A DNA stretch of 64,000 bases from Bythopirellula goksoeyrii. GTDB lineage: Bacteria; Planctomycetota; Planctomycetia; Pirellulales; Lacipirellulaceae. The notes beneath the pieces are model-generated. The model searched no databases. It saw only the letters and a list, made by a program, of their open reading frames with translations, and was not told where the DNA came from. The position numbers and the translations under genes are program-made. Numbering within the stretch: the first letter of the stretch is position 1; each line of letters begins with the position of its first letter. Positions 3,691 through 63,657 of the stretch are shown here, in pieces. The stretch covers positions 2,516,338 to 2,580,337 of the forward strand of contig NZ_CP042913.1 of NCBI RefSeq assembly GCF_008065115.1, given 5' to 3'.

Positions 3691-3728
3691 CTATTCCGCA
3701 ATCCGCAATCCGCAATCCGAATTCCGCA
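3691..3728. repeat. Iterated ATTCCGC/AATCCGC words between moxR and the small membrane gene
   Basis: About five near-identical copies of a heptamer of the form ATTCCGC/AATCCGC run head to tail. The same words occur before tyrS (5737-5833) and, degraded, before clpB. Here only one arm is present. It lies 12 bases upstream of the small membrane gene in the direction of transcription. Confidence 0.7.
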
Positions 3729-3732
3729 TTGC

Positions 3733-4740
3733 TTATTTTTCGTCCGCCTTTTCAGGAACTTTCTTCACGATATCGGTTAGGACCTGATCCGGCTCGATCC
3801 CTTCGGCGGCGGCTTCGAAATTAAGTATCACCCGGTGTCGCATTGCTGGCAAATAAACCCGGCGGATATCGTCGAAGCTAACATTGTAGCGGCCGTTCAA
3901 GAGGGCCCTCACTTTCGCGGCAAGAGAGATCGTCTGAGCACCGCGAGGGCTGGAACCCCACCGCAGGTATTGATTCGTGGCGGGTTGCGCGAACGGGCCA
4001 TTGGGATGGGTGGCTAAAGTGAGTCGCACGATGTAATCCTGCACATGCGGGGCGATGATGACTTTTCGTATGAGCTGCTGCCAACGGAGGATTTCTTCGC
4101 CGTCCATCACTTTGTCAGGTTTCACCGTTTCACCACGCGTAGTGCGGTCGATGATTGTGGCCAGTTCCTCGCGGCTGGAGTAACCCACAACGAGCTTAAA
4201 GAAAAACCGGTCAAGCTGTGCTTCGGGGAGTGGATAGGTCCCTTCCTGCTCGATTGGGTTTTGCGTCGCCATCACAAAGAAAGGCAACTTCATCGGGAAC
4301 ACTTTCCCCGCAATGCTCACCTTTTGCTCCTGCATGGTTTCGAGCATTGCTGATTGTGTTTTGGGGGTAGCTCGATTGATTTCGTCTGCGAGACATATCT
4401 GAGTGAAGAGAGGCCCTTTTTGAAATTCGAAGCTACGCCTTCCTTCGGGAGTCTCTACCACCATGTTGGTCCCCAGGATGTCGGCGGGCATTAGATCAGG
4501 GGTAAATTGAATTCGCGAAAAGTCGAGGTCCAGCGTCTCAGCAAGAGTCTTCACCAGAAGCGTCTTGCCCAATCCGGGGACCCCTTCCAGCAGGCAATGT
4601 CCACCGACGAATAAACAAGTGAGAACCCCATGGACGATATCACTGTGCCCCACAATCACGCGGCCCAGTTGCTCACGGACAGCCTTGTAGCGCTGGGCGA
4701 ATTCCTCAGCATCTTTTTCTATTGATTTGCCATCACTCAT
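3733..4740 (-). CDS. MoxR-family AAA+ ATPase
   Basis: A 335-residue protein of normal length for the family. Walker A is GVPGLGKT (residues 53-60), Walker B is CLADE (about 116-120) with the typical continuation INRATPKTQSAMLE, and sensor 1 is MATQNPIEQEGTYPLPEAQLDRF. MoxR ATPases act as chaperone-like remodelers together with VWA proteins. This one heads an operon with a small membrane protein, a DUF58 protein and a BatA-like VWA protein. The ATG at 4740 is the first in frame; about 250 non-coding bases separate it from the divergent ispD, so a promoter should lie there. Confidence 0.95.
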   Translation of the reverse strand: MSDGKSIEKDAEEFAQRYKAVREQLGRVIVGHSDIVHGVLTCLFVGGHCLLEGVPGLGKTLLVKTLAETLDLDFSRIQFTPDLMPADILGTNMVVETPEGRRSFEFQKGPLFTQICLADEINRATPKTQSAMLETMQEQKVSIAGKVFPMKLPFFVMATQNPIEQEGTYPLPEAQLDRFFFKLVVGYSSREELATIIDRTTRGETVKPDKVMDGEEILRWQQLIRKVIIAPHVQDYIVRLTLATHPNGPFAQPATNQYLRWGSSPRGAQTISLAAKVRALLNGRYNVSFDDIRRVYLPAMRHRVILNFEAAAEGIEPDQVLTDIVKKVPEKADEK

Positions 4741-4917
4741 ATTCGCGGGTTCTCGCAGGGTGAGGAAAGTTTGCAGACGGTAGCCTGGCGAAGTGAAAGA
4801 GTAGTTTTAGTCCCTTTTAGCCTACCTGCCCAGACTTTTCTCCGCTAGCGCCCGAAGGACGATACCGCAATGAATGGAAATGTGTTAGCTTGGCGGTTTC
4901 GCCATCTACTACTGACC

Positions 4918-4985
4918 ACGAATCACCCTTGCCGGAAGCTTACGCATCCGGCTTGCCTGTATCTCCAGGCGCTAACGCTTCTGGC
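4918..4985. repeat. Two adjacent short palindromes before ispD
   Basis: The first arm pair is GCCGGA...TCCGGC around AGCTTACGCA. Directly after it comes a second imperfect hairpin, CCAGGCGCTAACGCTTCTGG. Paired palindromes like these resemble REP/BIME units. They lie in the divergent spacer between moxR and ispD, on the ispD side. Confidence 0.55.
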
Positions 4986-4994
4986 TCGCCTATC

Positions 4995-5732
4995 ATGTCC
5001 AATGTTGCCGTGATCATGCCCGCCGCCGGCGCCAGTCGGCGGTTTCATGACAAGAATTATAAGAAACCCTTTGCCCCGCTCGCCGGTAGAGCCGTGTGGC
5101 TCCACACGGCGGAAAAGTTTCTCAATCGGGCTGACGTGAAACAAGTTATTGTGGTGATTGCCGACGAGGACATGGAGGAATTCCAACGCAAGTTCGGGGC
5201 GAATCTTGCCATCTTGGGTGTCGAAGTCTGCCGCGGTGGTGATGAGCGGGCAGATTCGGTGGAAAAAGCCCTCGCGAAGGTGAAACCCGATTGCGATCTC
5301 GTTGCCGTGCATGACGCTGCTCGGCCCTGCCTGGCCGACAAATGGATCGATGCGGTGTTCGAGGCGGCAGCGAAAGATGGCGCCGCGATCCTCGCCGTGC
5401 CCGAGACGGCAACCTTGAAGCGAGTCGCTCAGGGTAAGATCACGGAGACCGTCAGCCGTGAATCACTCTGGCAAGCTCAGACTCCGCAGGTGTTCCGCCG
5501 CGAGTGGCTTATGGAGGCGTACACGGCTCGTGCTGGGAAAGCTGCAACCGACGATGCTGCACTTGTGGAGTTGGCCGGACATCCGGTGACTATTGTCGAA
5601 GGCTCACCACTCAACTTAAAGATCACCACTCGCGACGACCTCAAGCTCGCCGAACAGATACTCAAAATTCTCCCCAAGCCGAAGCTCGATGGTTTCGCCA
5701 ATCCCTTTGCCGGAGATGATATGTGGAGATAG
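4995..5732 (+). CDS. ispD: 2-C-methyl-D-erythritol 4-phosphate cytidylyltransferase
   Basis: Transfers CMP from CTP to methylerythritol phosphate, the third step of the MEP route to isoprenoids. The frame is open from 4890, but the first 35 codons are encoded by the palindromic repeat; the ATG at 4995 gives MSNVAVIMPAAGASRRF, the expected start, and 245 residues. Family motifs are present: the PAAGASRRF nucleotide loop, KPFAPLAGRAV, VHDAARP, ETVSRESLWQAQTPQVF, TDDAALVE and GSPLNLKITT. There is no clear Shine-Dalgarno site. It is followed in the same direction by tyrS after a repeat-filled spacer of about 100 bases. Confidence 0.95.
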   Translation: MSNVAVIMPAAGASRRFHDKNYKKPFAPLAGRAVWLHTAEKFLNRADVKQVIVVIADEDMEEFQRKFGANLAILGVEVCRGGDERADSVEKALAKVKPDCDLVAVHDAARPCLADKWIDAVFEAAAKDGAAILAVPETATLKRVAQGKITETVSRESLWQAQTPQVFRREWLMEAYTARAGKAATDDAALVELAGHPVTIVEGSPLNLKITTRDDLKLAEQILKILPKPKLDGFANPFAGDDMWR

Positions 5733-5736
5733 GTTG

Positions 5737-5833
5737 AATTCGGATTTCGGAATTCGGAATTCGGAATTAAGATAGTCCTCGCTGTTTCGTTTTTTGAATT
5801 CCGCATTCCGCAATCCCAAATCCGCATTCCAAT
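5737..5833. repeat. Two-armed iteron cassette (GAATTCGG / ATTCCGC words) before tyrS
   Basis: The left arm has repeats of TTCGGAATTCGG type (5737-5770). The right arm (5797-5832) has the complementary words ATTCCGC, so the two arms can pair across a spacer of about 28 bases. The right arm ends one base before the tyrS ATG, leaving no room for a Shine-Dalgarno site. Confidence 0.75.
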
Positions 5834-7123
5834 ATGTCTCTGATTTCCGATCTCCGTTGGCGTGACCTGATTCATCAAACAACGAATGATGAAGGCATTG
5901 ATGCCTGGCTCACCGAGAAACCTCGCACTCTCTATGCCGGCTTTGATCCTACGGCTTCGAGTCTGCACGTGGGCAGTTTGATGGGGCTCTTAATGTTGCG
6001 ACGTTTCCAACTGGCCGGACATCGCCCGATTGCCGTCGTTGGAGGTGCCACAGGGATGATCGGCGATCCAAGTGGGAAAAGCGACGAGCGAAACCTGCTC
6101 TCCAAGGAGCAACTCCAGGAAAATGTCGACGGCCTCGGAAAACAGATGGCCCGGTTTCTGGATTTTGATGAGGCGAAGAATCCAGCACTATTGGTCAACA
6201 ATTTCGACTGGACCGGCGGTTGGAGTTATCTCGATTTTCTGCGCGACATAGGCAAGAATTTTCCAGTGAACGTCATGCTCGCCAAGGACTCGGTCAAGAG
6301 TCGACTCGGACGGGGGGAGGATGCCGGTAGCGCTGGAATGAGCTACACGGAATTCAGCTACATGCTGCTGCAAGCCTATGACTTTGTGTACCTGAGCGAC
6401 AAGTACGGTTGCGAACTGCAAGCGGGCGGTAGCGACCAGTGGGGCAACATTACAGCGGGTATCGATCTGGCCCGCCGCATGCGAGGCACGCAGGTCTATG
6501 GCCTCACCTGGCCACTGCTCACAAAGTCCGATGGCACCAAGATGGGCAAGACCGAGAGTGGAGCCGTCTGGCTCGATGCCGAGCGCACTAGCCCCTATCA
6601 GTTCTATCAATATTGGATCAACGTTGACGACGCCGACGCCGGCAACTGCCTGCGACTATTGACGGATCTCAATCATGAAGAGATCGAGCTCTTGGATATT
6701 GCTCGAGTGAATAATCCCGGTCAACGAGACAGCCAGCGCCGCCTTGCCGAAGAACTTACGCGTCTTGTCCATGGCGAAACCGCTTTAGCAACCGCGCAGA
6801 AAGCCACTGAAATCTTCTTTGGCGCAGAGATCGCGGACCTCTCCGATGCCCAACTCACCGAAATCTTTGCCGACGTCCCAAGCAAATCTTTAAGCCTCTC
6901 ACAGCTTAGCGAAGGCCTCAACATTGTTGACGCCCTAGTCGAGGCCGGCCTGTCCAAGAGCAAAGGCGAAGCCCGCCGCACCGTCGAGCAGGGGGGGGCT
7001 TACGTCAACAATCGCCGCATCGCGGGTATCGACACGCACCTTTCCACCGAGCACCTGGCGAGCGAAACGGTGCTGGTCTTGCGGAGTGGGAAGAAGAAGT
7101 ACGCGCTATTGCGGTTTGAATAG
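5834..7123 (+). CDS. tyrS: Tyrosine--tRNA ligase
   Basis: Charges tRNA-Tyr with tyrosine. At 429 residues it is typical for bacterial TyrRS. The class I HIGH signature appears as HVGS in TASSLHVGSLMGL (about residues 44-47), and the KMSKS loop appears as KMGKT in SDGTKMGKTESG. YxxQAYD and GGSDQWGNI are tyrosine-binding segments. A C-terminal S4 RNA-binding domain is recognisable in LVEAGLSKSKGEARRTVEQGGAYVNNRRI. The ATG lies directly after the iteron cassette, so initiation probably does not rely on a Shine-Dalgarno site. Confidence 0.97.
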   Translation: MSLISDLRWRDLIHQTTNDEGIDAWLTEKPRTLYAGFDPTASSLHVGSLMGLLMLRRFQLAGHRPIAVVGGATGMIGDPSGKSDERNLLSKEQLQENVDGLGKQMARFLDFDEAKNPALLVNNFDWTGGWSYLDFLRDIGKNFPVNVMLAKDSVKSRLGRGEDAGSAGMSYTEFSYMLLQAYDFVYLSDKYGCELQAGGSDQWGNITAGIDLARRMRGTQVYGLTWPLLTKSDGTKMGKTESGAVWLDAERTSPYQFYQYWINVDDADAGNCLRLLTDLNHEEIELLDIARVNNPGQRDSQRRLAEELTRLVHGETALATAQKATEIFFGAEIADLSDAQLTEIFADVPSKSLSLSQLSEGLNIVDALVEAGLSKSKGEARRTVEQGGAYVNNRRIAGIDTHLSTEHLASETVLVLRSGKKKYALLRFE

Positions 7124-7303
7124 GTTGACAGATTATTAGTACCTAAAATCGCTGTAAATGGCGATCTCCAGCCAACGAATCTTGCCCCTTCAGTTGTGCT
7201 AGCAATGCTCCCCTTGCAGGTTTTGAATTGTTGGGGCTATAACAGTCGCTGGCTTGAAAGCCACTGAATCAATCGCCAAACGGACATTTGCGAGGATATA
7301 CCT

Positions 7304-7516
7304 ATGAGTTCCAATCACCTCCCTTTTACTCAACAGATTTCTGACGAAGCCATTGCTCAACGTGCTTATGAGATTTGGGAGTCCCGCGGCTGTCCCTCTG
7401 GTGACGGCTCCGCGGACTGGGAGACTGCCAAGCGGCAACTAGTTGCCGAGCAACGTCCCGGTGGTGGGCCGATTCGTTGGCTTATTGCACGGTTGCGAAA
7501 CCGCGCGGCGATGTAG
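7304..7516 (+). CDS. DUF2934 domain protein
   Basis: A 70-residue protein with a good GAGGA ribosome-binding site upstream of ATG 7304. The core RAYEIWESRGCPSGDGSADW with following AKRQL is the usual DUF2934 pattern, a short helical domain common in plant-associated and planctomycete bacteria. The tail ends in a basic helix (PIRWLIARLRNR). Function is unknown. It stands alone between tyrS and the DUF4160/DUF2442 pair. Confidence 0.75.
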   Translation: MSSNHLPFTQQISDEAIAQRAYEIWESRGCPSGDGSADWETAKRQLVAEQRPGGGPIRWLIARLRNRAAM

Positions 7517-7574
7517 CGTCTTCCAATAGGTCGGAGACTCGCGCTGAACGTAGATGTTCCAGCCTGAAATCGAG

Positions 7575-7583
7575 TGGTATAAT
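7575..7583 (+). promoter_or_regulatory. Extended -10 promoter element at the DUF4160 start
   Basis: The sequence TGG-TATAAT is a perfect extended -10 (TGn followed by TATAAT at 7578-7583). The ATG of the DUF4160 gene is only six bases further on, so a transcript starting the usual 6-8 bases after the -10 would begin at or next to the start codon. No good -35 hexamer is seen, which is normal for extended -10 promoters. Confidence 0.55.
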
Positions 7584-7589
7584 CAAAGT

Positions 7590-7847
7590 ATGCCAACAAT
7601 CTCTAGATTCTACGGGATTGTGATTTTCATGAATTATAATGATCACCTGCCTCCGCACTTTCACGCTCGCTATCAAGATCAAGAAATTACCGTCAATCTA
7701 GGCAGTGGTAAAGTGCAAGGAACCATGCCTCGTCGGGCATTGAATATGGTACTTGAGTGGAGGGAGCAGCACCAAGCGGAGTTATTGCAGAACTGGGAAT
7801 TGGCTAGGCAAAGACGTCCTCTGCAACAGGTACCGCCACTTTCTTAA
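7590..7847 (+). CDS. DUF4160 domain protein
   Basis: Using the ATG at 7590 gives 85 residues that begin MPTISRFYGIVIFMNYNDH, the standard DUF4160 opening. HLPPHFHARYQDQEI is the conserved core and the rest includes LEWREQHQAELLQNWELA. The pair DUF4160-DUF2442 recurs widely in bacteria and is often suspected to be a toxin-antitoxin-like or small regulatory module; no function is proven. The DUF2442 gene follows after 11 bases. A putative extended -10 almost touches the start codon. Confidence 0.85.
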   Translation: MPTISRFYGIVIFMNYNDHLPPHFHARYQDQEITVNLGSGKVQGTMPRRALNMVLEWREQHQAELLQNWELARQRRPLQQVPPLS

Positions 7848-7858
7848 GAAAGACAACC

Positions 7859-8113
7859 ATGTTTCTCCACGTAACCGAAGTTCGCTATCTGGAAGGTTAT
7901 CGCCTTGAAGTAAGCTTTAATGATGGGAGCATCAAGGAACTCGATTTGGTCAATGAACTTCATGGAGAGGTCTTTAAGCCTTTAAAGAACATCGAGACTT
8001 TTAAACAAGCCACTGTTAACGAGGAAACCAATACAATCGAGTGGCCCAATGGAGCTGATTTTGCTCCCGAGTTTCTTCACGAGATTGGAAGAGACATTCG
8101 TCAGCCGATATAA
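7859..8113 (+). CDS. DUF2442 domain protein
   Basis: An 84-residue protein starting at ATG 7859, 11 bases after the DUF4160 stop. The family pattern is clear: EVRYLEGYRLEVSFNDGS, KELDL, a central F-KPL segment, and the end TIEWPNGADFAPEFLHE. It belongs with the preceding DUF4160 gene as a two-gene unit. Function is unknown. It converges on the coaB gene; the stops are 17 bases apart. Confidence 0.85.
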   Translation: MFLHVTEVRYLEGYRLEVSFNDGSIKELDLVNELHGEVFKPLKNIETFKQATVNEETNTIEWPNGADFAPEFLHEIGRDIRQPI

Positions 8114-8130
8114 AGAATTGATCGCGCTGG

Positions 8131-8757
8131 CTATCTGATCAAACGCTCGGTGATTACGGCGAGGATTTCGTCGGCGACCAATCGCTTCGATCCTGCGATC
8201 TGTTTTAGAACGGTGCCAGCAGGATTGAGGATTTCTACCTCGTTATCAAGCGAGTCCATGGCAGAGACGCTATTGGAGACGATCAGGTCGCAGTGCTTGC
8301 GTTCGAGTTTTGCCAGGGCGCGCAAGCGATGATCCTCAGTCTCCAGGGCGAAACCGACAACCCAGCGAAATCCTTTCTCGGCGCCGAGTGTGGCGACGAT
8401 ATCGTCCGTCTCGATCAGGTGGAGTTCCAGAGGTTGGCCCGTCTTAGCGATTTTGTTGGGCTCGACATGTACTGGGCGATAATCGCAAGGAGCGGCGGCA
8501 CCGATCAAACCATCGCACGAGTCGAACTCTTCGCGACAGATGGTGAGCATGTCCTCGGTCGAGACAACAGGTACGACACGGGCTCCGGCCGGATATTCCA
8601 CTTCGACGGGTCCGCTCACTACGGTCACCTTGTGTCCCAATGCCAACGAAGCTTCGACCAGCGCGGCACCCATGCGGCCACTGGAAGCGTTCGTAAGATA
8701 ACGTACGGGATCAAGATACTGACGTGTAGGGCCTGAGGTGATGAGGATGTGTGCCAC
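8131..8757 (-). CDS. coaB: Phosphopantothenate--cysteine ligase (stand-alone CoaB)
   Basis: Couples 4'-phosphopantothenate to cysteine with a nucleotide triphosphate, in coenzyme A synthesis. The 208-residue protein opens with the family signature TSGPTRQYLDPVRYLTNASSGRMG. It carries AAPCDYRP, the KIAK motif (PNKIAKTG) and GFALETE, all expected in CoaB. In most bacteria it is fused to CoaC; here it is a separate gene 12 bases after coaC, starting with GTG. It ends the minus-strand run that begins with tpiA. Confidence 0.93.
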   Translation of the reverse strand: MAHILITSGPTRQYLDPVRYLTNASSGRMGAALVEASLALGHKVTVVSGPVEVEYPAGARVVPVVSTEDMLTICREEFDSCDGLIGAAAPCDYRPVHVEPNKIAKTGQPLELHLIETDDIVATLGAEKGFRWVVGFALETEDHRLRALAKLERKHCDLIVSNSVSAMDSLDNEVEILNPAGTVLKQIAGSKRLVADEILAVITERLIR

Positions 8758-8769
8758 GCCATTTGTGCC

Positions 8770-9309
8770 CTAGGTTTGTAGCAACTTTCTCACGGCTGCG
8801 GCGATCTCGGCAGGCTCGGCCATGCGGCCCATTCCCTTTTGTCGGCAGCTAAGCCAACCCTCATTGGGGCCAACGAGATGAAATCCATCGGATCGAAGTT
8901 GCTCGACGTTGCGTTGGACGGCGGCTTTCTCCCACATTTCGCAATTCATTGCTGGGGCCAGCACAATTGGGCCAGTGAAACTCAATATCAAAGTGCTCAG
9001 CAGATCGTCGGCAAGGCCGTGGGCCGCTTGAGCCATTAAATGTGCCGTTGCTGGAGCCACGCAGAGAAGGTTCGCTTGTCGGGCGAGCTCAATATGGGGA
9101 CCCAACGGAAAGTCGTGGCGGTCGAACGTTCGTGTCAACACGCGCCGGCCAGTGAGTGCCTGAAATGTGGCTGGGCCGACAAACTTCTGAGCGGCACGAG
9201 TCATGACGACAGTCACGCCGACGCCGCTTTGCACAAGATCGCTAACCAGCGCAGCCGTCTTGTATGCGGCTATGCCGCCGGACACGCCGACTACGATTTC
9301 ATGTGCCAT
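8770..9309 (-). CDS. coaC: Phosphopantothenoylcysteine decarboxylase (stand-alone CoaC)
   Basis: An FMN enzyme of coenzyme A synthesis. At 179 residues it is a lone CoaC domain. The start VGVSGGIAAYKTAALVSDL is the flavoprotein family signature. HIELARQANLLCVAPATAH contains the catalytic histidine region, PAMNCEMW is the PAMN motif (usual form PAMNTxMW), and SCRQKGMGRMAEP holds the substrate-clamp cysteine. Its ATG directly touches the octamer repeat array, which replaces any Shine-Dalgarno site. coaB follows after 12 bases. Confidence 0.93.
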   Translation of the reverse strand: MAHEIVVGVSGGIAAYKTAALVSDLVQSGVGVTVVMTRAAQKFVGPATFQALTGRRVLTRTFDRHDFPLGPHIELARQANLLCVAPATAHLMAQAAHGLADDLLSTLILSFTGPIVLAPAMNCEMWEKAAVQRNVEQLRSDGFHLVGPNEGWLSCRQKGMGRMAEPAEIAAAVRKLLQT

Positions 9310-9310
9310 A

Positions 9311-9433
9311 GTGAGTAGGTGAGTAGGTGAGTAGGTGAGTAGGTGAGTAGGTGAGTAGGTGAGTAGGTGAGTAGGTGAGTAGGTGAGAGTTCGTGGAAAT
9401 CTTCCTACTTACTCACTTATTAACCTACTCACT
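9311..9433. repeat. Two-armed octamer iteron cassette (GTGAGTAG) before coaC
   Basis: Nine perfect tandem copies of GTGAGTAG fill 9311-9382, followed by a partial copy. After about 20 unrelated bases the opposite-strand word appears (CTTACTCAC, CCTACTCAC) at 9404-9433, so the two arms can pair. The array begins one base from the coaC ATG (minus strand) and ends 9 bases before the rpoZ stop. The same octamer family recurs at 63582-63657. Confidence 0.92.
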
Positions 9434-9441
9434 TTTAAACA

Positions 9442-9708
9442 CTACAAACTGGTAAGATCCAACTCGGGAGGTCCACCATCGGCAACGACTTCTTCGCTGG
9501 CGACTTTCACTTGATTGGTAGAATCAAGATAGATTTTATCCTGGAGGATTTCCTGTACCACGATTTCCATTTTATCTTTGGACTCAAAATCGACCAAAGG
9601 TCGAGCGCCGGCATTAATCGCAGCAAGACGTTTTTGGATCAGCGTGGACAACTTAAAACGCCCACCAACTTTGTTGACAATCTGTTCTTCCTTTAAGGCA
9701 TCAATCAT
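9442..9708 (-). CDS. rpoZ: DNA-directed RNA polymerase omega subunit (planctomycete type)
   Basis: An 88-residue protein with the omega core [18 protein letters not shown], then an AGARPLV segment and an acidic tail. Omega assists assembly of RNA polymerase by binding beta-prime. Position supports the call: rpoZ directly after gmk and yicC is a conserved order in many bacteria. Its start overlaps the gmk stop by 8 bases, so the genes are probably translated together. Confidence 0.85.
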
Positions 9709-10303
9709 TGGGAATTCCTTCGTTTTGCAATTGGTTGACTATTTCTTCGACCGCCTTCGAGACGGTGTCATTGACTACTTGATATTTATAGCGACGGGCG
9801 AGCGCGATCTCACGGCGGGCCACTTCCAGTCGACGCTCGATGGCTGCGGGGGTCTCGGTGGCGCGAGACCGTAGACGACGTTCCAATTCTTCGATCGTCG
9901 AGGGTTGGATAAATATGGTCAGAGCATCCGGGAACTGGCGAAGAACCTCCTCGGCTCCCGCCACGTCAATCTCTAAGAGTACCCATTTTCCCGCAGAGAG
10001 ACTAGGCCTCACGGCACTCCAGAGCGTGCCATACCAGTGTCCGCGGCCAAAAACCTCGGCAGTTTCCAAAAAGTCTCCTGCCTCGCGTCGCCGGGTAAAC
10101 TCCGCGGGGGAGAGGAAAAAGTAATCCACACCGTCCGTCTCTCCAGAGCGAGGATCACGAGTCGTTGCCGAGATGCTAGGCACAAGTCGCCCTGCTAGTC
10201 GCTCCAGAACCTGTTTGACGACAGTACTCTTGCCAACGCCAGAAGGGCCGGAGACGACGACGAGTCTGCCGGGAACGTCGGATTTTCCGGGAGCGATAGT
10301 CAT
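9701..10303 (-). CDS. gmk: Guanylate kinase
   Basis: Phosphorylates GMP to GDP with ATP. The 200-residue length is typical. The P-loop is [12 protein letters not shown] near the N-terminus. The GMP-binding segment [19 protein letters not shown] and the [12 protein letters not shown] strand follow, then [17 protein letters not shown] (lid) and [13 protein letters not shown]. It overlaps yicC by 4 bases (ATGA type) and rpoZ by 8 bases. Confidence 0.97.
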
Positions 10304-11187: not shown

Positions 11188-11250
11188 GTTTGTACCTCAA
11201 TTATCGGATTTTGACCGGATAGAGTTCGGCTATGAAAGTTTTCGACTGGA

Positions 11251-11676: not shown

Positions 11677-11752
11677 TTCGAAAGCTCCGTCTTTATCGTA
11701 GAAGACTGGTAATTAGGTTGGTACTGTATTTCAGCTTTTTGAATTCAACTAA

Positions 11753-12523: not shown

Positions 12524-12598
12524 ACTATCTACTCCAATCGAATCTAGGCCAAACAAACTTTGTCGGGGAAACTTGTCGAACTACTTCCCATCCTCTTG

Positions 12599-12660
12599 TA
12601 GCCGTGGCCGGAAGGCCATGGTGTAATTTGAAACGAACCATGGCCTTCCGGCCACGGCTA
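12599..12660. terminator. Perfect 24-bp inverted repeat downstream of pheA
   Basis: Arms 12599-12622 and 12637-12660 are exact reverse complements (24 of 24) around a 14-base loop. The arms are GC-rich with a GGCCGGAAGGCC core. It lies after the pheA stop and before tpiA on the same strand, so it could end pheA transcripts, though there is no U-run. It may instead be a dispersed REP-like repeat. Confidence 0.7.
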
Positions 12661-12695
12661 GGAAGAAATGGGGGCCGTTTCTATAGCCCCTCAGT

Positions 12696-16092: not shown

Positions 16093-16102
16093 GCAAGGTA
16101 TT

Positions 16103-16145: not shown

Positions 16146-16216
16146 GTTCTGCTTTGTGGGTGTCGATATTTGCGTACTCTGCTGCGCTGGCGCTCCGCAT
16201 CGCGGCTAACTTCTTT

Positions 16217-16258
16217 CTTTTAATCCGCATTTCGAATTCTTAATTCAGCATTTAATAC
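16217..16258. repeat. Degenerate ATTCCGC-type iterons before clpB
   Basis: The words AATCCGCATTTCGAATTCTTAATTCAGCATT resemble a decayed copy of the repeat before tyrS. It stops two bases before the clpB ATG, again leaving no room for a Shine-Dalgarno site. Confidence 0.45.
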
Positions 16259-16259
16259 T

Positions 16260-53223: not shown

Positions 53224-53232
53224 AGTGTGAAC

Positions 53233-56974: not shown

Positions 56975-57442
56975 GACCCTATCTAGCGGCGGTGAACGCG
57001 AGGGCTGATCACGCCATTGGGTTTTTGCAAGGACGGATTCTTACGCGGGTTCAACTTGCGACTGGTACGCTTCCTGGTACTAACTGAGTAAGGCATCGGG
57101 ATTCTCCTCAATAGGGGGGTGGAAGGTGTAACTCCATCCCAATAGCATTCCAGATTGCCGAAGTTCTCCAGAAGAGTAATTTTCTGAGATCAAACCATCA
57201 TACCCGTGCCAAACCGCCGCTCCAAACGAGCATTGGTAAATGCGGGCTACGTTGCCGACATCGAACGCGAAATGGGAATTCACAATACCGACTTTGGAGC
57301 CGGATAGGCGAAAGGAAAGAACAATCGAACCCCGAGAAAGCGTCAGAATGCGCTCCTAGAACAAACCTCGGCCACAATCAACCGAAATGAGGCTTTTTCT
57401 GGATTCTTGGAGATATTGCAGATCGGCTGACGAACTCAAAGT
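56975..57442. other. Spacer before the IS element
   Basis: About 470 bases. A 67-codon minus-strand frame (57080-57283: FAFDVGNVARIYQCSFGAAVW, ending HPPIEENPDALLS) has a protein-like composition and may be the tail of a lost gene, but no family or start can be named. Nothing else is seen. Confidence 0.35.
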
Positions 57443-57450
57443 CTATGTAG
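57443..57450. repeat. Left target-site duplication CTATGTAG
   Basis: Eight-base direct repeat immediately before the IS left end, identical to 58977-58984. Confidence 0.85.
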
Positions 57451-58976
57451 TCGTCCCTGAAAAACCTTGGAAGTCCTTGAATTGTGGGGATGCAACGGCG
57501 TTTTGCTGGCGCTAAAATTTGCCAGGTTTTGATCCGTTGGTCCCCGAAAGCTGGCAAAAAATGAAGCCCAAGACGCCGACTCCGCAGCGTGAACTCTTTG
57601 GCGCGCACCTGAGCGAACTTCTCAATCCGGAGCATCCCCTTTACCTCCTTGCCGACCGGATTGACTGGCGGCAGTTCGACCTGGCCATCGATGCCTGCTA
57701 CGCCGACGAACTGGGTCGGCCAGGGGTGAACACCCGCCTGATGGTCGGCCTGATGTACCTCAAGTACACATTCAGCGAAAGTGACGAATCGGTAGTGGCC
57801 CGGTGGGTGGAAAACCCATATTGGCAGTACTTCTGTGGGTTGCAGTACATGCAGCACGAGCTGCCCATCGATTCGTCCATGATGAGCAAGTGGCGAAAGC
57901 GAGTGGGAGCCGAGCGTCTCGAAACACTTCTGGAAGCAACGATCCACACTGCGTTGGCGATGAAAGCGCTCAAGCCCCAAGAACTCCAGCGAGTGAACGT
58001 CGACACGACTGTCCAGGAGAAGGCAATTGCCTTTCCGACCGATGCCCGGCTGTACCACAAGATGCGGATTGCTTTGGTGCGGCACGCCAAAGCGCTCGGA
58101 ATCCCTTTGCGTCAAAGCTACCAATTCGTGGGGAAGAAGACGCTGTTTTGGCAGCATCGGTACGCTCATGCCAGGCAGATGAGGCGGGCGGCGAAGATGA
58201 ACCGCAAGCTGAAAACGCTCCTGGGTCGGGTGGTGCGAGATATCGAGCGGAAGGCCCGTAAGTTTCGGGGAAAGATTGCCGACGAACCGTTGCGCGAGTT
58301 GTTGGCACTGGCGCAGCGTCTGCTTGCCCAAGAGCGTAACAGCAAGAACAAAATCTACAGTGTGCACGCTCCGGAAGTGGAGTGCATCGCCAAGGGTAAG
58401 GCGCACAAGCGTTACGAGTTCGGCTGCAAAGCGAGTGTTGCGACTACCAGCAAGAACAATTGGATTGTCGGCGCGCAGGCCCTGCACGGCAATCCGTATG
58501 ATGGACATACGTTGGCCGGGGCGATCGAGCAGATCGAACGGCTCACGGCTAAAACACCCCAGGATGTGATGGTCGACCAGGGTTATCGAGGTCACGGTTA
58601 CAAAGGAGAAGCGACGGTGCATGTCGTGCACACAATTCCCAAGGAGGCAACACACGCGGTGCGGCGGATGCTCAAGCGTCGCGCGGCGGTCGAACCGACG
58701 ATCGGTCACTTGAAGATTGATAACCGGCTGAGTCGCAACCATCTGACTGGCACAGCAGGCGACCAAATCAACGTGCTGTTGGCCGCCGCAGGATACAATC
58801 TGCGTAAGCTGCTGCGCTGGATCGTTTTTTCGCCCGTTTTGCGGCTCTTGAACCGGCTGGAATCGCTGCTGAACTTCAAATCGGCCCTCCAACGCCGTCT
58901 GCTGAGCCCATAATTAACAGGAGCAAGTCGACGGAATTTACCACGACTCGGCCGAAAGAGAATTTATCAGGGACGG
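57451..58976 (+). mobile_element. Complete IS5-type insertion sequence
   Basis: A 1526-bp element with one transposase gene. The ends are short inverted repeats: left TCGTCCCTGA, right TCAGGGACGG (9 of 10 paired), with weaker extension inward. An identical 8-bp direct repeat CTATGTAG flanks both ends, which shows insertion by transposition. Both ends, the duplication and the transposase frame are intact, so the insertion may be recent. Confidence 0.92.
57561..58913 (+). CDS. IS5-family (DDE) transposase
   Basis: About 450 residues from ATG 57561; the frame is open back to a TTG at 57519. The N-terminal DUF772-type domain is seen in DRIDWRQFDLAID, GRPGVNTRLMVGLMYLKYTFSESDE and LPIDSSMMSKWRKRVG. 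The DDE triad is visible: Asp in VNVDTTVQEKAI, Asp in MVDQGYRGHGY and Glu in AAVEPTIGHLKID. It is full length with no frameshift, so the element could still move. Confidence 0.94.
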   Translation: MKPKTPTPQRELFGAHLSELLNPEHPLYLLADRIDWRQFDLAIDACYADELGRPGVNTRLMVGLMYLKYTFSESDESVVARWVENPYWQYFCGLQYMQHELPIDSSMMSKWRKRVGAERLETLLEATIHTALAMKALKPQELQRVNVDTTVQEKAIAFPTDARLYHKMRIALVRHAKALGIPLRQSYQFVGKKTLFWQHRYAHARQMRRAAKMNRKLKTLLGRVVRDIERKARKFRGKIADEPLRELLALAQRLLAQERNSKNKIYSVHAPEVECIAKGKAHKRYEFGCKASVATTSKNNWIVGAQALHGNPYDGHTLAGAIEQIERLTAKTPQDVMVDQGYRGHGYKGEATVHVVHTIPKEATHAVRRMLKRRAAVEPTIGHLKIDNRLSRNHLTGTAGDQINVLLAAAGYNLRKLLRWIVFSPVLRLLNRLESLLNFKSALQRRLLSP

Positions 58977-58984
58977 CTATGTAG
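58977..58984. repeat. Right target-site duplication CTATGTAG
   Basis: Identical to 57443-57450, directly after the IS right end. Confidence 0.85.
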
Positions 58985-59055
58985 TGAGGTAAACATTCAG
59001 GTAAACGAAAGGCTGATGGGCCCCCCGAAACTCAAAAACCCCCCATAAACAAATA

Positions 59056-59128
<73 letters not shown>

Positions 59129-59446
59129 ATACGGCTCAGGCAAAACCTGCAAACCAGAGCAGCAGAGTATAATCGCTCCCGGCCACTTCGGCTAGCCGCT
59201 CCTTTGGCCAGTTTGGTGGTAAATTGGCAGGACCAAGGGTCCAGATGAGCGGTCGCCTGACATGGCAGCCCAAAGCATAGCGGTAGACGCTAAGAAGAAT
59301 TCCATGAAGGGACTGTCTACTCAGAGTTACGCAGAATCTGTGCCTTGCCCACCATGAATTAAACAACGAGAGGAATCACGCACGATTCCCCTCGTTGCTT
59401 CGCTGGGTTTCCCTAGTGCTCGGTGCTCGGGCTGGCAGTGTGGATT
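59129..59446. other. Spacer upstream of tRNA-Lys
   Basis: About 320 bases without a supported gene; a 76-codon minus-strand frame has no motif. The tRNA-Lys promoter must lie here on the minus strand. Confidence 0.5.
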
Positions 59447-59767
59447 CTACTGCCCACAGTTGCAGTCGCCGGTTTCCATTGGAACGCCCATCATCGATGT
59501 TCCCATCATAGGGGAGCCCATCATTGGTGAGCTGCCATCGAAGCCGTAGCTCACTGCAGAACTATCGGAACAGCAAGGATCGCATGCCGGCATGCAGCAT
59601 GTCGGCTGAGGGCAACAGGTGGGTGCGGGTGCACAGCGCTGGACGCTCCCCATCATCGGAGTTGCACAGGCACGCTGTCGAGAACCAAACAAATTGTGAC
59701 AAACACCGCAGCCGGTGGAGTTCAGGATCAACGCGGCTGCCGCTATCAATAATAAAGTCTTTTTCAT
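59447..59767 (-). CDS. Small Cys- and Met-rich lipoprotein
   Basis: The frame is open from 59995, but ATG 59767, directly preceded by AGGAG, gives MKKTLLLIAAAALILNSTGC, a lipoprotein signal peptide with Cys20 as the lipidated residue. The mature 87 residues have about 13 cysteines in pairs (CCPQPTCCMPACDPCC) and a C-terminal tandem MMGxPMMGxSMMG, then ETGDCNCGQ. Similar short Cys-rich lipoproteins are frequent in planctomycetes. Metal binding or cross-linking in the envelope is possible but unproven. Confidence 0.72.
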   Translation of the reverse strand: MKKTLLLIAAAALILNSTGCGVCHNLFGSRQRACATPMMGSVQRCAPAPTCCPQPTCCMPACDPCCSDSSAVSYGFDGSSPMMGSPMMGTSMMGVPMETGDCNCGQ

Positions 59768-60228
59768 CTCCTGCTTTGTCCCGCGGGTGGGGACGCTCCG
59801 TTCACGTGGTTTGCCAAAGGCAATGTTGGCCAGCCAGCCACGAACGCTCATTCGTAGTCGGCAAGCAATGATTTCTCCACGCAAACATTCCCCACGGAGT
59901 GGTGATAAGCAAACATCACGGTGACTTTTTGCATCATTTTCCCCGACAAAGATACACTGCATACCGTTTGTGGCGAATGCGCGCTTGACCGGCAACCGGT
60001 TATTCCATCAAGAATGATTGTTCCATCGATCACGACTGTTTACGATGAAAGTACCTTTGCGAACTGTCCCAAATACAATGGAACTGGTTTGATGCTGCGT
60101 TTAAAATCACTACCGAAAGCACCTGCTACTTTATTGAGCCACGGATGAAACACGGACATACATCGACTTAAAGCTTCCGACTTATCCGTGAATACTCTGT
60201 GCAGATCCGTGGCTAAACTCCTCCCACT
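59768..60228. other. Divergent spacer lipoprotein / signal peptidase
   Basis: About 460 bases with no supported gene. Its right end holds the CACGGAT-type two-armed repeat (60137-60214). Confidence 0.5.
60137..60214. repeat. Two-armed CACGGAT iteron cassette before the first signal peptidase
   Basis: The left arm starts AGCCACGGAT (60137-60146) and repeats as ACACGGACAT. The right arm has TTATCCGTGAA and ends ATCCGTGGCT (60205-60214), the exact reverse complement of the left end. Ten-base outer arms and imperfect inner words face each other, as in the cassettes before tyrS and coaC. It ends 14 bases before the TTG start of the signal peptidase. Confidence 0.75.
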
Positions 60229-61467
60229 TTGAAAACTTCATTCACCACATCCATTGCTGCAGTTGCCAAGCTTGCCATAGGCACGTTCGTCTTGGCTATA
60301 CTGCTACGTACTTGGTTGGAAATGGGACTTGTTGAGCCGGTCACGGTGGCGGGCAGTTCCATGGCACCAACTCTACTAGGGCCTCATGCGTCGGTGCAGT
60401 GCGAGCGCTGCCAAAATGGGTTCGACGTAGGCGCAGAGTTCGCTGCGGTTGCGGACGAAGCCGAGTGCCCTCAGTGCGGCTTTCAAAAAAACTCGCTGGC
60501 TGAGTTGCCAGTGAACCGAGGTGACCGCCTCCTCATCGATCGCACAGCTTTCACCTATCGCATACCCGAACGTTGGGAGCCCGTCGTGTTTGCCTCGCCC
60601 ATGGAAGAAGGAGGCCTGGTCGTCAAACGCGTCGTCGGCCTCCCAGGTGAAACGATCCAACTTCGTGACGGAGAGCTTTGGACCAATGGTCGATTGGCAA
60701 AGAAACCACTTGCTACTCAACGGACCTTGCGCAGCTTGGTTCACAAAGAAACGGCAGCTGCCAATCGGTGGCGTGGCTCTGGTTGGACGTGGCGCAACAA
60801 TTCATGGAATTGTGAATCAGAAACTGATTGGCAGTGGCTCAGCTACGAGCATCCAGGTAAGAAGCCGATTACCGACGACTCGGCTCACAATGCCGGCCTG
60901 ACACGTCGTTTATTCGAGGTGCGAGATCTCTGCCTCTCGATGAGATTGCAAACTACTGGCAACGGCGACTTCGCAATCCGCATGAACGCTGACGAAAAAG
61001 TTCTAGAAATTAAACTCAACCCAAGTGCGGGCACCCTGGAATATCTGGCGGGTGAAAAGATACTCTCCCGCAAGGAACTCTCCACAGAAGCCTTGCGAAA
61101 TTTGCAAAATCGCGAAGTGCAATTAGAGCTGTCCTTCTGCGACCAGCAATTGCTTGTGGCTATCGAGGGACGCGTGGAATTTATACAAGAAAAGGTGGCG
61201 GAGGTCGAATTTCATGACCCCCGTCCCCTCTTTTCAGTGGGAGCGCGGAATCTCTCTGTGACCTTGTGCGACTTGCAGGTTTATCGGGACATATATTATG
61301 CATCGCGAGAGGAATCGCAGGGCTTCAAGGAGCCTATGGTACCCGTCACACTCGGCGAGAGAGATATCTTTGTTCTGGGAGACAATGTGCCGATCTCGCT
61401 CGACAGCCGCCATTGGGGGCCCCTTCCGCTGCGATTCTTGGTTGGTCGGCCGCTGGGTGTCCGCTAG
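60229..61467 (+). CDS. lepB: Signal peptidase I with zinc ribbon and inserted beta domain
   Basis: Cleaves signal peptides at the membrane. The product has 412 residues from a TTG start. After one membrane helix (about 10-30) the catalytic Ser44 lies in VAGSSMAPTLLG and the catalytic Lys133 in LVVKRVVGLPGE. LGDNVPISLDSRHWGPL is the C-terminal S26 box. Two insertions are unusual: a CxxC-x18-CxxC zinc ribbon (Cys58, 61, 80, 83) right after the Ser box, and about 190 residues of beta-rich sequence (LCLSMRLQTTGNGDFAIRM, QLELSFCDQQLLVAIEG) before the last box. A second, larger relative follows. Confidence 0.92.
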   Translation: MKTSFTTSIAAVAKLAIGTFVLAILLRTWLEMGLVEPVTVAGSSMAPTLLGPHASVQCERCQNGFDVGAEFAAVADEAECPQCGFQKNSLAELPVNRGDRLLIDRTAFTYRIPERWEPVVFASPMEEGGLVVKRVVGLPGETIQLRDGELWTNGRLAKKPLATQRTLRSLVHKETAAANRWRGSGWTWRNNSWNCESETDWQWLSYEHPGKKPITDDSAHNAGLTRRLFEVRDLCLSMRLQTTGNGDFAIRMNADEKVLEIKLNPSAGTLEYLAGEKILSRKELSTEALRNLQNREVQLELSFCDQQLLVAIEGRVEFIQEKVAEVEFHDPRPLFSVGARNLSVTLCDLQVYRDIYYASREESQGFKEPMVPVTLGERDIFVLGDNVPISLDSRHWGPLPLRFLVGRPLGVR

Positions 61468-61596
61468 CACCTCTCGCCCTGCGGACATTCAAGTTTCCCG
61501 TGTTTGGGAATTTTGACTATATTGCCCGTTCGCAAGCGAATAGAATCTAGCTCCTACCTATATTGATGCTGAACTGAACCCTCTCCCCCTGAATTC

Positions 61597-63585
61597 ATGG
61601 CCAAGAAAAAAACACCCAAATACCGTAGTTCTCCGCCTAGTGCGCCAGCGCGCGAAGAGATTAGCTCGTCGAGCAGTAGCACCGTGGCTTTTCGCGAGAC
61701 GATCGAGTCGATCGTGATTGCCTTCGTGCTGGCATTCCTATTTCGCACCTTCGAAGCCGAAGCGTTTGTGATCCCCACCGGTTCGATGTCCCCTTCCCTG
61801 CTGGGTCAACATAAGGATGTGGAGTGCAGCGAGTGTGGCTACCGTTTTCGTACGACGGCCAGCACCGAGGGAGAAGACCGAGATGCGCGAATGGCCCGCC
61901 TTCGCCAGCCCAACGTGACTCCTCAGGAGCGGATGCATTTGGAACGAGAGATCGCCGGAGCCGAAGTGATCGCGGGCATGTGCCCCATGTGTCGGCAGAC
62001 GATGCTCTACCGCAGCGACGATCTCCCGCTTGGCCTTCCACCATCGGTGGACTCCGCACATATTGTCGACGAACCGAGCTATCCCGGTGACCGTATTCTG
62101 GTCAACAAATACAGCTTTGGCTTCCGCGATCCGAAGCGTTGGGAAGTCGTCGTATTCAAGTTCCCCGGTAACGGTGAAATGAACTACATCAAGCGACTCG
62201 TTGGCTTACCGGGAGAAGTTCTGCAAGTCTATCAAGGAGATATCTTTATCCGCCCCGAAGAGGAGGGTTCAGAATTTCACATCGAGCGTAAACCACCGCA
62301 CAAGGTGAAGGCAATGCTCCAGCCAGTGCATGATACGGACTACGATCCTTCGATCCTCTATGATGCCGGCTGGCCCTTGCGGTGGAGCGATGCGAACGGA
62401 GGCTGGCAAACCGAAGTAGAAAAGGACGATTCCAACATCGTGCAACGACACAAGTTTGTTTCTACCGATTCCCCAGCAGACGCGCCCGTGGCATGGCTCC
62501 GGTATCAACACCTGCTGCCGGACGACAATGATTGGACCGTCGCCCGCCGCTATGCCGACCAGGGTAAGTTTGTGGGAACCACGAAGGAGCAGTGGATCGA
62601 GGGCGTTCGACCACAACTCATCAGCGATTTTAACCCCTATAATGCCCGCATCCTGCGAGCTCAGCTCATGAATCGTGGACCCCTGCAGATGGAACCCCAT
62701 TTGTTGGGAATGGAGTGGGTCATGGACCTCGGGGTCTTGTTCGACGTAGACATTCATGAGGCCCAGGGTGAATTGCTGTTGGACCTCGTCGAGGCAGGAA
62801 AGCATTTTACTTGCCAGATCGATCTCAAGACGGGCATAGCGACTCTAAGCATCGACGGGCTTTCAGAATTTACGGCGACTGCCCAAACGCCACTCTCCAG
62901 AGCAGGCAATTTTCGAGTGCAGTTTGCCAATGTCGATGATCAACTCATGCTGTGGGTCGATGACAAGCTTATTTTGTTCGGGGATGGCGAGGGCGCAGCG
63001 ACGTACGATGCCGACAAGCTTTTTGGCGGCCGCGAGAATGCCATTCCACAGACCTCAGAGGATGACCCCGGCGATCTTTCTCCGATCGGTATCGGTGCCC
63101 GAGGTGCTTCGCTCACCATCAACCATATCGAAGTGCTGCGAGACATTTATTACATTTCTGCGCGAGCCAGCGATAAACCGGTTCGAGCCAAGTGGAGCGG
63201 AATGGGCTATCACCTCGACTACGATCATCCCGACGATGAGGCCCAACTAGCGGACGGAACGGTCCTTCCGCCGCTGAGTTATGAGCGTCAGATGTTCTCT
63301 GACCCCGACACGTGGCCCCGCTTCCTCACGCGTCACAAACGCACATTCCCCGTGGAGAAGGGGCAATATTTTGTCATGGGAGACAACAGCCCCGAAAGCC
63401 TCGACTGCCGCCTTTGGAAACACGGGAATGATCCAAACGCCGTTCCGGGGGGAGCTTATCTAGATGCACGATTGATGACCGGCGATGCCGTCTGCGTATT
63501 TTGGCCCCATTCGTGGGGAAACATTCCTGGGTTGAAAAAGCTACCTGGATTCCCCAACTTTTGGGATATGAGAATTGTGAGGTGA
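61597..63585 (+). CDS. lepB: Large signal peptidase I with zinc ribbon and inserted beta domain
   Basis: At 662 residues this is more than twice the usual length. A basic cytoplasmic start, one helix (about 35-52), Ser63 in IPTGSMSPSLLG, and Lys199 in NYIKRLVGLPGE. YFVMGDNSPESLDCR and DAVCVFWP are the final S26 boxes. A zinc ribbon (Cys77, 80, 129, 132) follows the Ser box. About 350 residues between the Lys and GDN boxes form a beta-rich domain that resembles a LamG/DUF1080-like jelly roll (FRVQFANVDDQLMLWVDDKLILF, INHIEVLRDIYYISAR). The last codons and stop lie inside the octamer repeat. Confidence 0.93.
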   Translation: MAKKKTPKYRSSPPSAPAREEISSSSSSTVAFRETIESIVIAFVLAFLFRTFEAEAFVIPTGSMSPSLLGQHKDVECSECGYRFRTTASTEGEDRDARMARLRQPNVTPQERMHLEREIAGAEVIAGMCPMCRQTMLYRSDDLPLGLPPSVDSAHIVDEPSYPGDRILVNKYSFGFRDPKRWEVVVFKFPGNGEMNYIKRLVGLPGEVLQVYQGDIFIRPEEEGSEFHIERKPPHKVKAMLQPVHDTDYDPSILYDAGWPLRWSDANGGWQTEVEKDDSNIVQRHKFVSTDSPADAPVAWLRYQHLLPDDNDWTVARRYADQGKFVGTTKEQWIEGVRPQLISDFNPYNARILRAQLMNRGPLQMEPHLLGMEWVMDLGVLFDVDIHEAQGELLLDLVEAGKHFTCQIDLKTGIATLSIDGLSEFTATAQTPLSRAGNFRVQFANVDDQLMLWVDDKLILFGDGEGAATYDADKLFGGRENAIPQTSEDDPGDLSPIGIGARGASLTINHIEVLRDIYYISARASDKPVRAKWSGMGYHLDYDHPDDEAQLADGTVLPPLSYERQMFSDPDTWPRFLTRHKRTFPVEKGQYFVMGDNSPESLDCRLWKHGNDPNAVPGGAYLDARLMTGDAVCVFWPHSWGNIPGLKKLPGFPNFWDMRIVR

Positions 63586-63657
63586 GTAGGTGACGGGTGA
63601 GTAAGTCGGACATCCCAACACTTACTCACTTACTCACTTACTCACTTACTCACCTAC
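63582..63657. repeat. Two-armed octamer iteron cassette (GTGAGTAG/GTGAGTAA) before lptB
   Basis: The left arm has GTGAGTAGGTGACGGGTGAGTAAG (positions 63582-63605 in two words, GTGAGTAG and GTGAGTAA). After about 15 bases the right arm carries the complementary word CTTACTCA repeated four times and CCTAC (63621-63657). The stop codon of the upstream signal peptidase is inside the left arm. It is the same family as 9311-9433. Confidence 0.88.

What the first reader, a model, noticed from the sequence alone, without database searches (positions are those of the whole stretch)
3691..63657. Three unrelated repeat words share one architecture and one location: just 5' of a gene in a same-strand spacer
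Six cassettes (3691, 5737, 9311, 16217, 60137, 63582) end 1-30 bases from the next start codon: the small membrane gene, tyrS, coaC, clpB, lepB and lptB. In tyrS, coaC and clpB the repeat replaces any Shine-Dalgarno site. Different words with the same form suggest a common process (slippage-built hairpins, or a mobile element class recognised by shape) and a role in translation initiation or operon uncoupling. To my knowledge this is not a described element class.
Basis: partly seen in the sequence, partly recalled or inferred. Interest (0 to 1): 0.8.

Follow-up and report, generated by a model that had tools for sequence, protein, structure and literature searches.

The report
Heptad-word hairpins at gene junctions
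Short hairpins built from a repeated seven- or eight-letter DNA word sit between neighbouring genes of this planctomycete; relatives often have the same gap empty or filled by a hairpin spelled with another word, so an unidentified process seems to keep writing, copying and losing them there.

Summary
All six sites carry repeat words beside a start codon. Four fold as strong hairpins (tyrS, coaC, lepB, lptB); the clpB and 3691 sites do not. In sampled spacers of this genome and its relative G004 there is a specific 7-nt (some 8-nt) periodicity that shuffles lack. Arrays lie within 10 nt of a gene end far more often than chance, also in long spacers. Orthologous junctions in relatives are often empty or hold another word. 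The two arms match within a species but not across species. Words are genome-specific, and one family (TTTGATG) shows an ordered phrase at several unrelated sites, so copies are dispersed rather than made only by local slippage. Hairpins beside the RAYT genes examined are of another form. Heptamer arrays near gene ends are described in Cyanobacteria, Xanthomonas and Beggiatoaceae, so this is a new variant of a known kind. Most likely: dispersed, fast-turnover hairpins tolerated at operon junctions. A translational role is possible but unproven, and pairing is not always kept.

The parts
3691..3731 (-). single-armed heptad array (GGATTGC/GGAATTC), directly 3' of the moxR-like stop codon (gene 3733-4740 minus), 11-15 nt 5' of a 50-codon ORF
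   Evidence: no strong hairpin (z -1.75); decayed arm also after the moxR stop in G004
5736..5829 (+). heptad hairpin filling the ispD-tyrS spacer: G-rich arm 5736-5768, loop 28, C-rich arm 5797-5829, ATG at 5834
   Evidence: z -5.4; orthologous spacers
9310..9433 (-). octad hairpin 5' of coaC: short arm 9407-9433, (CTACTCAC)9.6 array 9311-9387 flush with ATG 9309; most of the long array is predicted unpaired
   Evidence: z -4.3; empty sites in relatives
16220..16255 (+). weak single-armed ATTCCGC-like stretch 5' of clpB, preceded by a GCATCGCGGCTAA word at 16197-16209
   Evidence: no hairpin (z +1.2)
60137..60214 (+). CACGGAT-word hairpin 5' of the first lepB-like gene
   Evidence: (z -3.0); not a tandem array by Tandem Repeats Finder
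63580..63663 (+). octad hairpin (GTGAGTAG .. CTTACTCAC; stem 63580-63655) overlapping the stop of the second lepB-like gene (TGA 63583-63585), 5' of the retained GGAGG site and lptB GTG 63685
   Evidence: (z -4.2); G004 has a TTAGCAA-word hairpin in the same slot

Best explanation
The cassettes belong to a loose class of dispersed imperfect hairpins whose arms are tandem 7- or 8-nt words. Shown: in this genus they are frequent, specific to period 7 (and 8), genome-specific in wording, present or absent at orthologous junctions, and often flush with gene ends, with the G-rich arm after a stop and the C-rich arm before a start. Inferred: whole hairpins are copied to new junctions by an unidentified agent, perhaps through single-stranded hairpin intermediates. 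Word units then expand, homogenise and mutate within arms by slippage, pairing decays, and the slot can later be refilled with another word. Same-strand operon junctions, and the removable leader codons of prepilin genes, are places where such insertions do least harm, so they persist there. Any effect on mRNA (stem-loop between cistrons, absence of a Shine-Dalgarno site) is secondary and site-dependent.
For: Period-7 specificity against shuffles in G000, G004 and G027. 23 sites of one word in the genome; all 4 sites where the pattern hits both strands are G-first. At coaC, 10 of 11 other same-genus species with a readable spacer have 7-40 nt and no cassette. Same slot, different word at lepB2-lptB (GTGAGTAG in G000, TTAGCAA in G004, GCGCTAG in G002 and G011, GGAGCGAG in G010). 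Arms match within a species (mean 22.6) but not when the 3' arm is swapped between species at the same junction (13.9; no permutation of 5000 reached the observed sum; 57 junctions). Arms from other junctions of the same genome match better (15.5) than fully unrelated ones (12.7). Patchy dictionaries: (GTGAGTAG)2 in 10 of 43 family genomes (reversed control 0); TTTGATGTTTGATGT with one mismatch in 16 of 43, with 21 and 19 hits in G007 and G011 and none in G000 or G004 (reversed control 5 hits in all). GATTGTTGAT phrase (<=1 mismatch, within 16 nt of the loop) in the 5' arm of 8 of 11 word hairpins found among 20 fetched TTTGATG regions. Of 38 conserved G000/G004 junctions, hairpins >=26 are in G000 only at 7, in G004 only at 2, in both at 0 (at lptB both have one, 22 and 28, with different words).
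Against: No terminal signature, target-site duplication or transposase was found for the word hairpins (target-site duplications were not searched systematically); the 8 RAYT loci examined carry other hairpins or none. Some arms look locally slipped (coaC 9.6 perfect octads in one arm). The phrase test was made for one word family only, and in 2 of the 11 hairpins (L288, L305) an equally or nearly equally good match lies elsewhere in the arm. Flush placement in long spacers (14 of 36 against 2.15 expected) and stop/start polarity are more ordered than simple tolerance predicts.
Confidence: 0.5

Rival explanations
1. Selected, word-independent RNA device: the stem bridges the intercistronic spacer so that the ribosome ending at the upstream stop opens the stem next to the downstream start, coupling translation; only shape matters, so words can change.
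For: G-rich arm at stop, C-rich arm at start (within 10 nt: 12 G/stop, 14 C/start, 2 C/stop, 0 G/start). Flush ends also in spacers >=200 nt. Arms matched within species. Strong folds at tyrS, coaC and lptB. A type IV pilus operon with arm score >=22 at 18 of 39 junction-species combinations (sequences).
Against: Pairing has decayed at tyrS in G004 (arm score 11 against 41 in G000). At coaC the start-side array is mostly unpaired and at lptB the hairpin ends before the Shine-Dalgarno region. Most relatives lack the hairpin altogether at coaC. In prepilin genes the 3' arm lies inside leader codons, not before the start. G013 has no arm score >=22 at 8 junctions of this operon. Matched arms also follow from copying or inverted duplication.
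Confidence: 0.2
2. Local birth by replication slippage plus snap-back or template-switch copying of the G-rich strand, with no dispersal.
For: Perfect tandem units, arms with different unit wording in G024 as if each arm homogenised alone, G-first polarity (18 G-first, 3 C-first, 1 even in same-strand spacers) as expected if the G-rich strand folds back.
Against: The same word at 23 sites in one genome, genome-specific dictionaries and the ordered phrase at unrelated sites point to copying between sites.
Confidence: 0.15
3. They are REPINs mobilised by the RAYT (Y1 transposase) genes of this genome.
For: 15 Y1_Tnp matches, 14 over the cut-off, in the genome; many REP-like hairpins (TAGCC...GGCTA) are present.
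Against: Of 8 RAYT loci read (8 of 15 matches), 6 have hairpins >=26, by eye none of them a word hairpin; 2 have none.
Confidence: 0.08
4. Ordinary filler: chance low-complexity sequence or terminators in spacers.
For: Two of six cassettes do not fold better than shuffles.
Against: lag spectrum; hairpins >=24 in 79 of 602 spacers against 3.3 in shuffles; no terminator-like site of the scans lies on a cassette.
Confidence: 0.03

Closest known systems
TAACTGA heptamer direct repeats of Beggiatoaceae, Cyanobacteria and Bacteroidetes (MacGregor 2015, PMC4679880; outline with abstract, and passages read)
   Same: 7-nt units, intergenic, most within a few nt 5' of a start codon and mostly without a Shine-Dalgarno site; patchy across phyla; indels in 7-nt steps between strains
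   Different: one word studied, with one inverted repeat reported in that genome; here many words, often with an inverted partner arm at the upstream stop
GGGAATC heptamers of Xanthomonas and GGGGA(C/T)T of Nostoc (Rehm 2015, PMC4692102; section 10 and passages read)
   Same: G-rich heptamers in intergenic sequence, 70 and 75 convergent inverted pairs in two genomes, closer to the 5' neighbouring ORF, mostly same-direction genes, length and sequence varying between species
   Different: one word per genome; studied as quadruplex-forming; replacement of the word at orthologous junctions not shown in the parts read
Heptanucleotide repeats of cyanobacteria (three words in Calothrix, as stated in a passage of PMC4692102; STRR name from a reference title in PMC4748335)
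   Same: tandem 7-nt words, several per genome; one STRR word (TTGGTCA, recalled) also occurs here
   Different: hairpin form and gene-end placement of the cyanobacterial ones not checked
REP/REPIN with RAYT (PMC3733652 and PMC3116915; passages read)
   Same: short dispersed inverted pairs, genome-specific families, non-autonomous
   Different: word hairpins have heptad-periodic arms of variable length, no common end seen, and no copy at the RAYT loci read
Heptamer-derived satellites of bacteria (PMC6749651; passages read)
   Same: heptamer-derived arrays scattered in a genome (22 from one heptamer in Chloroflexus); non-coding satellite transposition proposed by the authors
   Different: no hairpin form or gene-end rule in the passages read
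Borg tandem repeats (PMC9879509; passages read)
   Same: rapidly evolving, genome-specific tandem repeats of independent origin, intergenic and in ORFs
   Different: perfect units (18-21 nt in the examples read), archaeal extrachromosomal elements, head-to-tail, not inverted pairs

Membership tests
Heptamer SSR / STRR class | tandem 7-nt units over-represented in intergenic DNA | tested here: met
   lag 7 in 26 of 657 spacers against 0.25 shuffled (G000), 17 of 259 against 0.25 (G004)
Heptamer SSR / STRR class | several different words per genome | tested here: met
Heptamer SSR / STRR class | homology or a shared maintaining enzyme with cyanobacterial STRRs | not testable with these tools
   I know of no enzyme to look for; words are short
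TAACTGA start-codon repeats | repeat within a few nt of a start codon, without a Shine-Dalgarno site | tested here: met
   14 C-rich arrays within 10 nt of a start; 0 of 14 flush genes with a Shine-Dalgarno motif against 439 of 1278, p 0.0037
TAACTGA start-codon repeats | the word TAACTGA | tested here: not met
   other words at the six sites; TAACTGC occurs in the G004 lptB cassette
REPIN / REP | inverted pair of a short repeat | tested here: met
   (4 of the 6 window cassettes)
REPIN / REP | GTAG or CGTC tag at one end of the palindrome | tested here: inconclusive
   arms of the 30 rows classed as word hairpins share no common end by inspection; sequence outside the arms was not examined for the tag
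REPIN / REP | cognate copies beside a RAYT gene | tested here: not met
   8 of 15 Y1_Tnp loci read (about 3.3 kb each): 0 word hairpins >=26
Intrinsic terminators | G+C-rich hairpin followed by a T run | tested here: not met
   no terminator-like site on the six cassettes (the scan allows loops of 3-8 only)
Rfam structured RNAs | match to a curated family | tested here: not met
   only two tRNAs in the window at gathering scores

The most novel reading that the evidence does not exclude
An unrecognised process, recognising form rather than sequence, writes heptad-word hairpins into gene junctions. Junction slots persist over species while the word in them is overwritten by whatever word the genome currently uses, as a rule with the G-rich arm at the stop and the C-rich arm at the start. 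This would be a shape-defined class of mobile or trans-templated DNA spread over many phyla, possibly used as a word-independent translation-coupling stem in long operons such as the pilus operon.
Probability: 0.25. Interest if true: 0.85.

Novelty: new variant of a known kind. Interest (0 to 1): 0.6.

Why it matters
Heptamer repeats at gene ends have been reported separately in Cyanobacteria, Xanthomonas and Beggiatoaceae, and in the papers seen here their cause is open. Here one genus gives many words, empty sites, same-slot word replacement and a dispersed phrase, which makes the origin question (slippage, mobility or selection for a stem) directly testable by comparing close strains. It also warns that start-codon-proximal repeats in such genomes need not be regulatory sites.

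Tried and rejected
Word-supplies-the-stop-codon idea: among 13 arrays flush with a stop, the stop triplet continues the repeat at 0.44 of positions, the upstream triplets at 0.21-0.46, so dropped as a rule. Orientation test on 52 public loci: 28 have an ORF stop within 25 nt of the 5' side, but the word itself carries stops, so only arrays starting at or after the stop are fair (12 of 52, against 2 of 52 for the mirror). In the same of 52 had an ORF start near the 3' side, partly because the word offers GTG starts, and 2 a minus-strand start near the 5' side. Period-10/11 CACGGAT hairpins and the CCAAT...ATTGG family (C-first) do not follow the heptad or polarity rule. My own simple gene caller makes start errors: 13 of 86 arrays fell inside called genes and were left out of the placement counts; some are prepilin leaders. 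The type IV pilus operon was compared after I noticed it, so its density is not a random sample. The same-strand excess is p 0.002 in G000 (34 of 43) but only 0.07 in G004 (21 of 26), and arrays are not independent. Only open-access papers were searched; no paper describing this class in planctomycetes appeared in those listings, which is no proof of absence.
Full report
Setting. The window lies at 2,516,338-2,580,337 of a single-contig genome of 6,473,141 bp. Its family (f1) contains Lacipirellula: the GTGAGTAG match of G063 at C1:444335 has the same position as that in the Lacipirellula limnantheis chromosome fetched (stretch starting at 440001, match at 4335), so the family is taken to be the Lacipirellulaceae (inference). 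Genomes are called G000 (own), G001-G013 (same genus) and so on, as the tool names them.

The six sites. Searches confirm the sequences; the exact picture is in the observation check. Two words are period 7 or 8 (GGAATTC/GGATTGC and GTGAGTAG). The lepB word (CACGGAT) is a looser hairpin, and the clpB stretch is a weak single arm. Folding separates four good hairpins from two sites that are not. No Rfam match other than tRNA, no terminator-like or promoter-like site of the scans on a cassette.

Genome-wide frequency. I took 60 stretches of 20 kb plus the window, 1.264 Mb or 19.5% of the genome, and called genes with a small Markov model (881 genes, 82% coding). Spacers of G000 contain lag-7 arrays in 26 of 657 and lag-8 in 8, with near zero in shuffles and 0-2 at other lags except the lag-14 harmonic (16). 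G004 shows 17 of 259 for lag 7 and 2 for lag 8, G027 4 of 76 for lag 7; G017, G040 and G051 show none at lag 7 or 8 in 53, 59 and 51 spacers, though G017 has 2 at lag 10. Imperfect hairpins of score >=24 occur in 79 of 602 spacers (up to 800 nt) against 3.3 in shuffles; many of these are not word hairpins but REP-like families.

Placement. In G000, G004 and G027, 86 arrays were found: 59 in same-strand spacers, 11 divergent, 3 convergent, 13 inside called genes. Density per kb of spacer is 0.29 same-strand, 0.12 divergent and 0.07 convergent in G000, and 0.40, 0.21 and 0 in G004; against spacer length the same-strand excess has p 0.002 in G000 and 0.07 in G004. Of the 59, 28 lie within 10 nt of a gene end against 10.5 +- 2.6 for random placement in the same spacers. 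In spacers of 200 nt or more it is 14 of 36 against 2.15 +- 1.42, so short spacers alone do not explain it. G-rich arrays are nearer the stop in 16 of 19 cases and C-rich ones nearer the start in 27 of 40 (Fisher p 2.5e-4); within 10 nt the counts are G/stop 12, G/start 0, C/stop 2, C/start 14. Among hairpins whose arms my script classed as periodic, those in same-strand spacers are 18 G-first, 3 C-first and 1 even; in divergent or convergent spacers 3, 4 and 1. Start positions come from my gene caller and are not curated.

Orthologous junctions. coaC: G000 has a 132-nt spacer filled by the octad hairpin; among the 11 other same-genus genomes with a readable spacer, 10 have 7-40 nt and one (G013) has 199 nt without such an array; G002 and G012 could not be read. 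G039, of another family, has a (GGGTTCA)n hairpin there. lepB2-lptB: the slot between the stop and a conserved GTCAYGGAGGACGA-like site holds GTGAGTAG in G000, TTAGCAA in G004 (95% identical lptB), GCGCTAG in G002 and G011, GGAGCGAG in G010, and is 32-43 nt in G001, G008 and G009; G006, G012 and G013 (53-82 nt) have no clear array, G003 is odd (880 nt), and G005 and G007 lack a readable lptB. tyrS: GGATTTC-like words in G000, G001, G004, G010, G013, G024 and G032, TTTGATG in G006, G007 and G011, GATTTATG/GATTTAGG in G034. So words are sometimes inherited and sometimes replaced. At clpB the picture is mixed. In 38 conserved neighbour pairs of G000 and G004, hairpins of score >=26 are private to G000 at 7, to G004 at 2 and shared at none; at lptB both species have one, but G000's scores 22. 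Word arrays are private to G000 at 3 and shared at 1 (lptB). REP-like hairpins turn over as fast.

A whole operon. The type IV pilus operon (G000 L034; G004, G010, G007, G013 in L283-L286) has a word hairpin at many junctions, with wording that differs by species and junction. In the prepilin genes the 3' arm runs through the leader codons up to the conserved TLIE region. By the arm score, 18 of 39 junction-species combinations reach 22; G013 has none of 8, and the first two junctions have none of 9.

Arms match within, not between, species. For 57 junctions (tyrS, coaC and lptB spacers of at least 60 nt in the same genus, plus the pilus operon; one shorter junction dropped; clpB not included) the 5' arm pairs with its own 3' arm at mean score 22.6. 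With the 3' arm of another species at the same junction it is 13.9, with another junction of the same genome 15.5, with neither shared 12.7, with a shuffled 5' arm 13.4. None of 5000 permutations of species within junctions reached the observed sum. The two arms change together, but copying of a hairpin as a unit would give the same result, so this is not by itself proof of selection for pairing. Against strict selection, the tyrS hairpin of G004 has lost pairing (score 11 against 41 in G000).

Words are genome-specific and dispersed. (GTGAGTAG)2 occurs in 10 of 43 family genomes (reversed control none) and TTTGATGTTTGATGT (one mismatch) in 16 of 43 (reversed control 5 hits in all, so single hits mean little); G007 and G011 have 21 and 19 of the latter while G000 and G004 have none. 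Of 20 short regions around such sites (13 of G007, 6 of G011, 1 of G022), 11 gave a word hairpin as the best hairpin. In 8 of these 11 the 5' arm carries GATTGTTGAT with at most one mismatch within 16 nt of the loop, and likewise 8 of 11 3' arms, while outer units vary in number and kind; in two of them a similar match also lies elsewhere in the arm. An ordered phrase at unrelated sites is best explained by copying between sites. The exact word (GTGAGTAG)3 also occurs in 52 stretches from many phyla; by a crude count 7 of 52 show the inverted octad partner nearby.

Agent. The genome has 15 Y1_Tnp (RAYT-type) matches, 14 over the cut-off. Of the 8 loci read, 6 carry hairpins of score >=26, by eye none with heptad words. 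So the RAYTs probably serve REP-like hairpins, and the agent behind the word hairpins is unknown.

Comparison with what is known. MacGregor (PMC4679880; abstract and passages) describes TAACTGA repeats just 5' of start codons with few Shine-Dalgarno sites. Rehm and colleagues (PMC4692102; section 10 and passages) describe G-rich heptamers of Xanthomonas, often as convergent inverted pairs and nearer the 5' neighbouring ORF. REP and REPIN papers (PMC3733652, PMC3116915; passages), a survey of prokaryotic satellites (PMC6749651; passages) and the Borg tandem-repeat paper (PMC9879509; passages) are further neighbours. I therefore file it as a new variant of a known kind and keep the bolder reading as a minority view.

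Noticed in passing
L034:4169-13201 (G000 C1:2136169-2145201): Type IV pilus/prepilin operon in which many junctions hold a different word hairpin, and 3' arms encode prepilin leader codons.
   Followed up: partly
L153:2499 to L154:13245 (G004): Gene cluster of polysaccharide-synthesis appearance with word arms at many junctions; two copies of a GAGGCGC array lie inside one called gene (L154:413-2713).
   Followed up: no
window 12524-12695; L037:15563-15647; L040:12853-12958; L031:11590-11764; L052:12079-12186: REP-like TAGCC...GGCTA-type hairpins; the three orthologous G004 spacers compared (window, L037, L040) lack that hairpin.
   Followed up: partly
L038:6471, L042:838, L043:17261, L032:14844: Dispersed TGTCATTTCGAGG..CCTCGGGATGACA hairpin family in spacers.
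   Followed up: no
L019:15890, L024:4937, L034:16357, L008:4893: Longer dispersed element (about 130-165 nt matched, CAGGAGAACTGCAAAG-like with CCAAT/ATTGG arms, C-first), possibly a MITE.
   Followed up: no
window 16197-16209: GCATCGCGGCTAA word beside the clpB array; its first 12 letters are the most widespread 12-mer of the sample (14 places).
   Followed up: no
L065, L069, L073, L075, L084, L085 (spacer before tyrS): A TATGATG motif lies in the tyrS spacer of 6 of 25 readable genomes over several genera (G001, G013, G027, G034, G032, G024), perhaps a promoter element.
   Followed up: no
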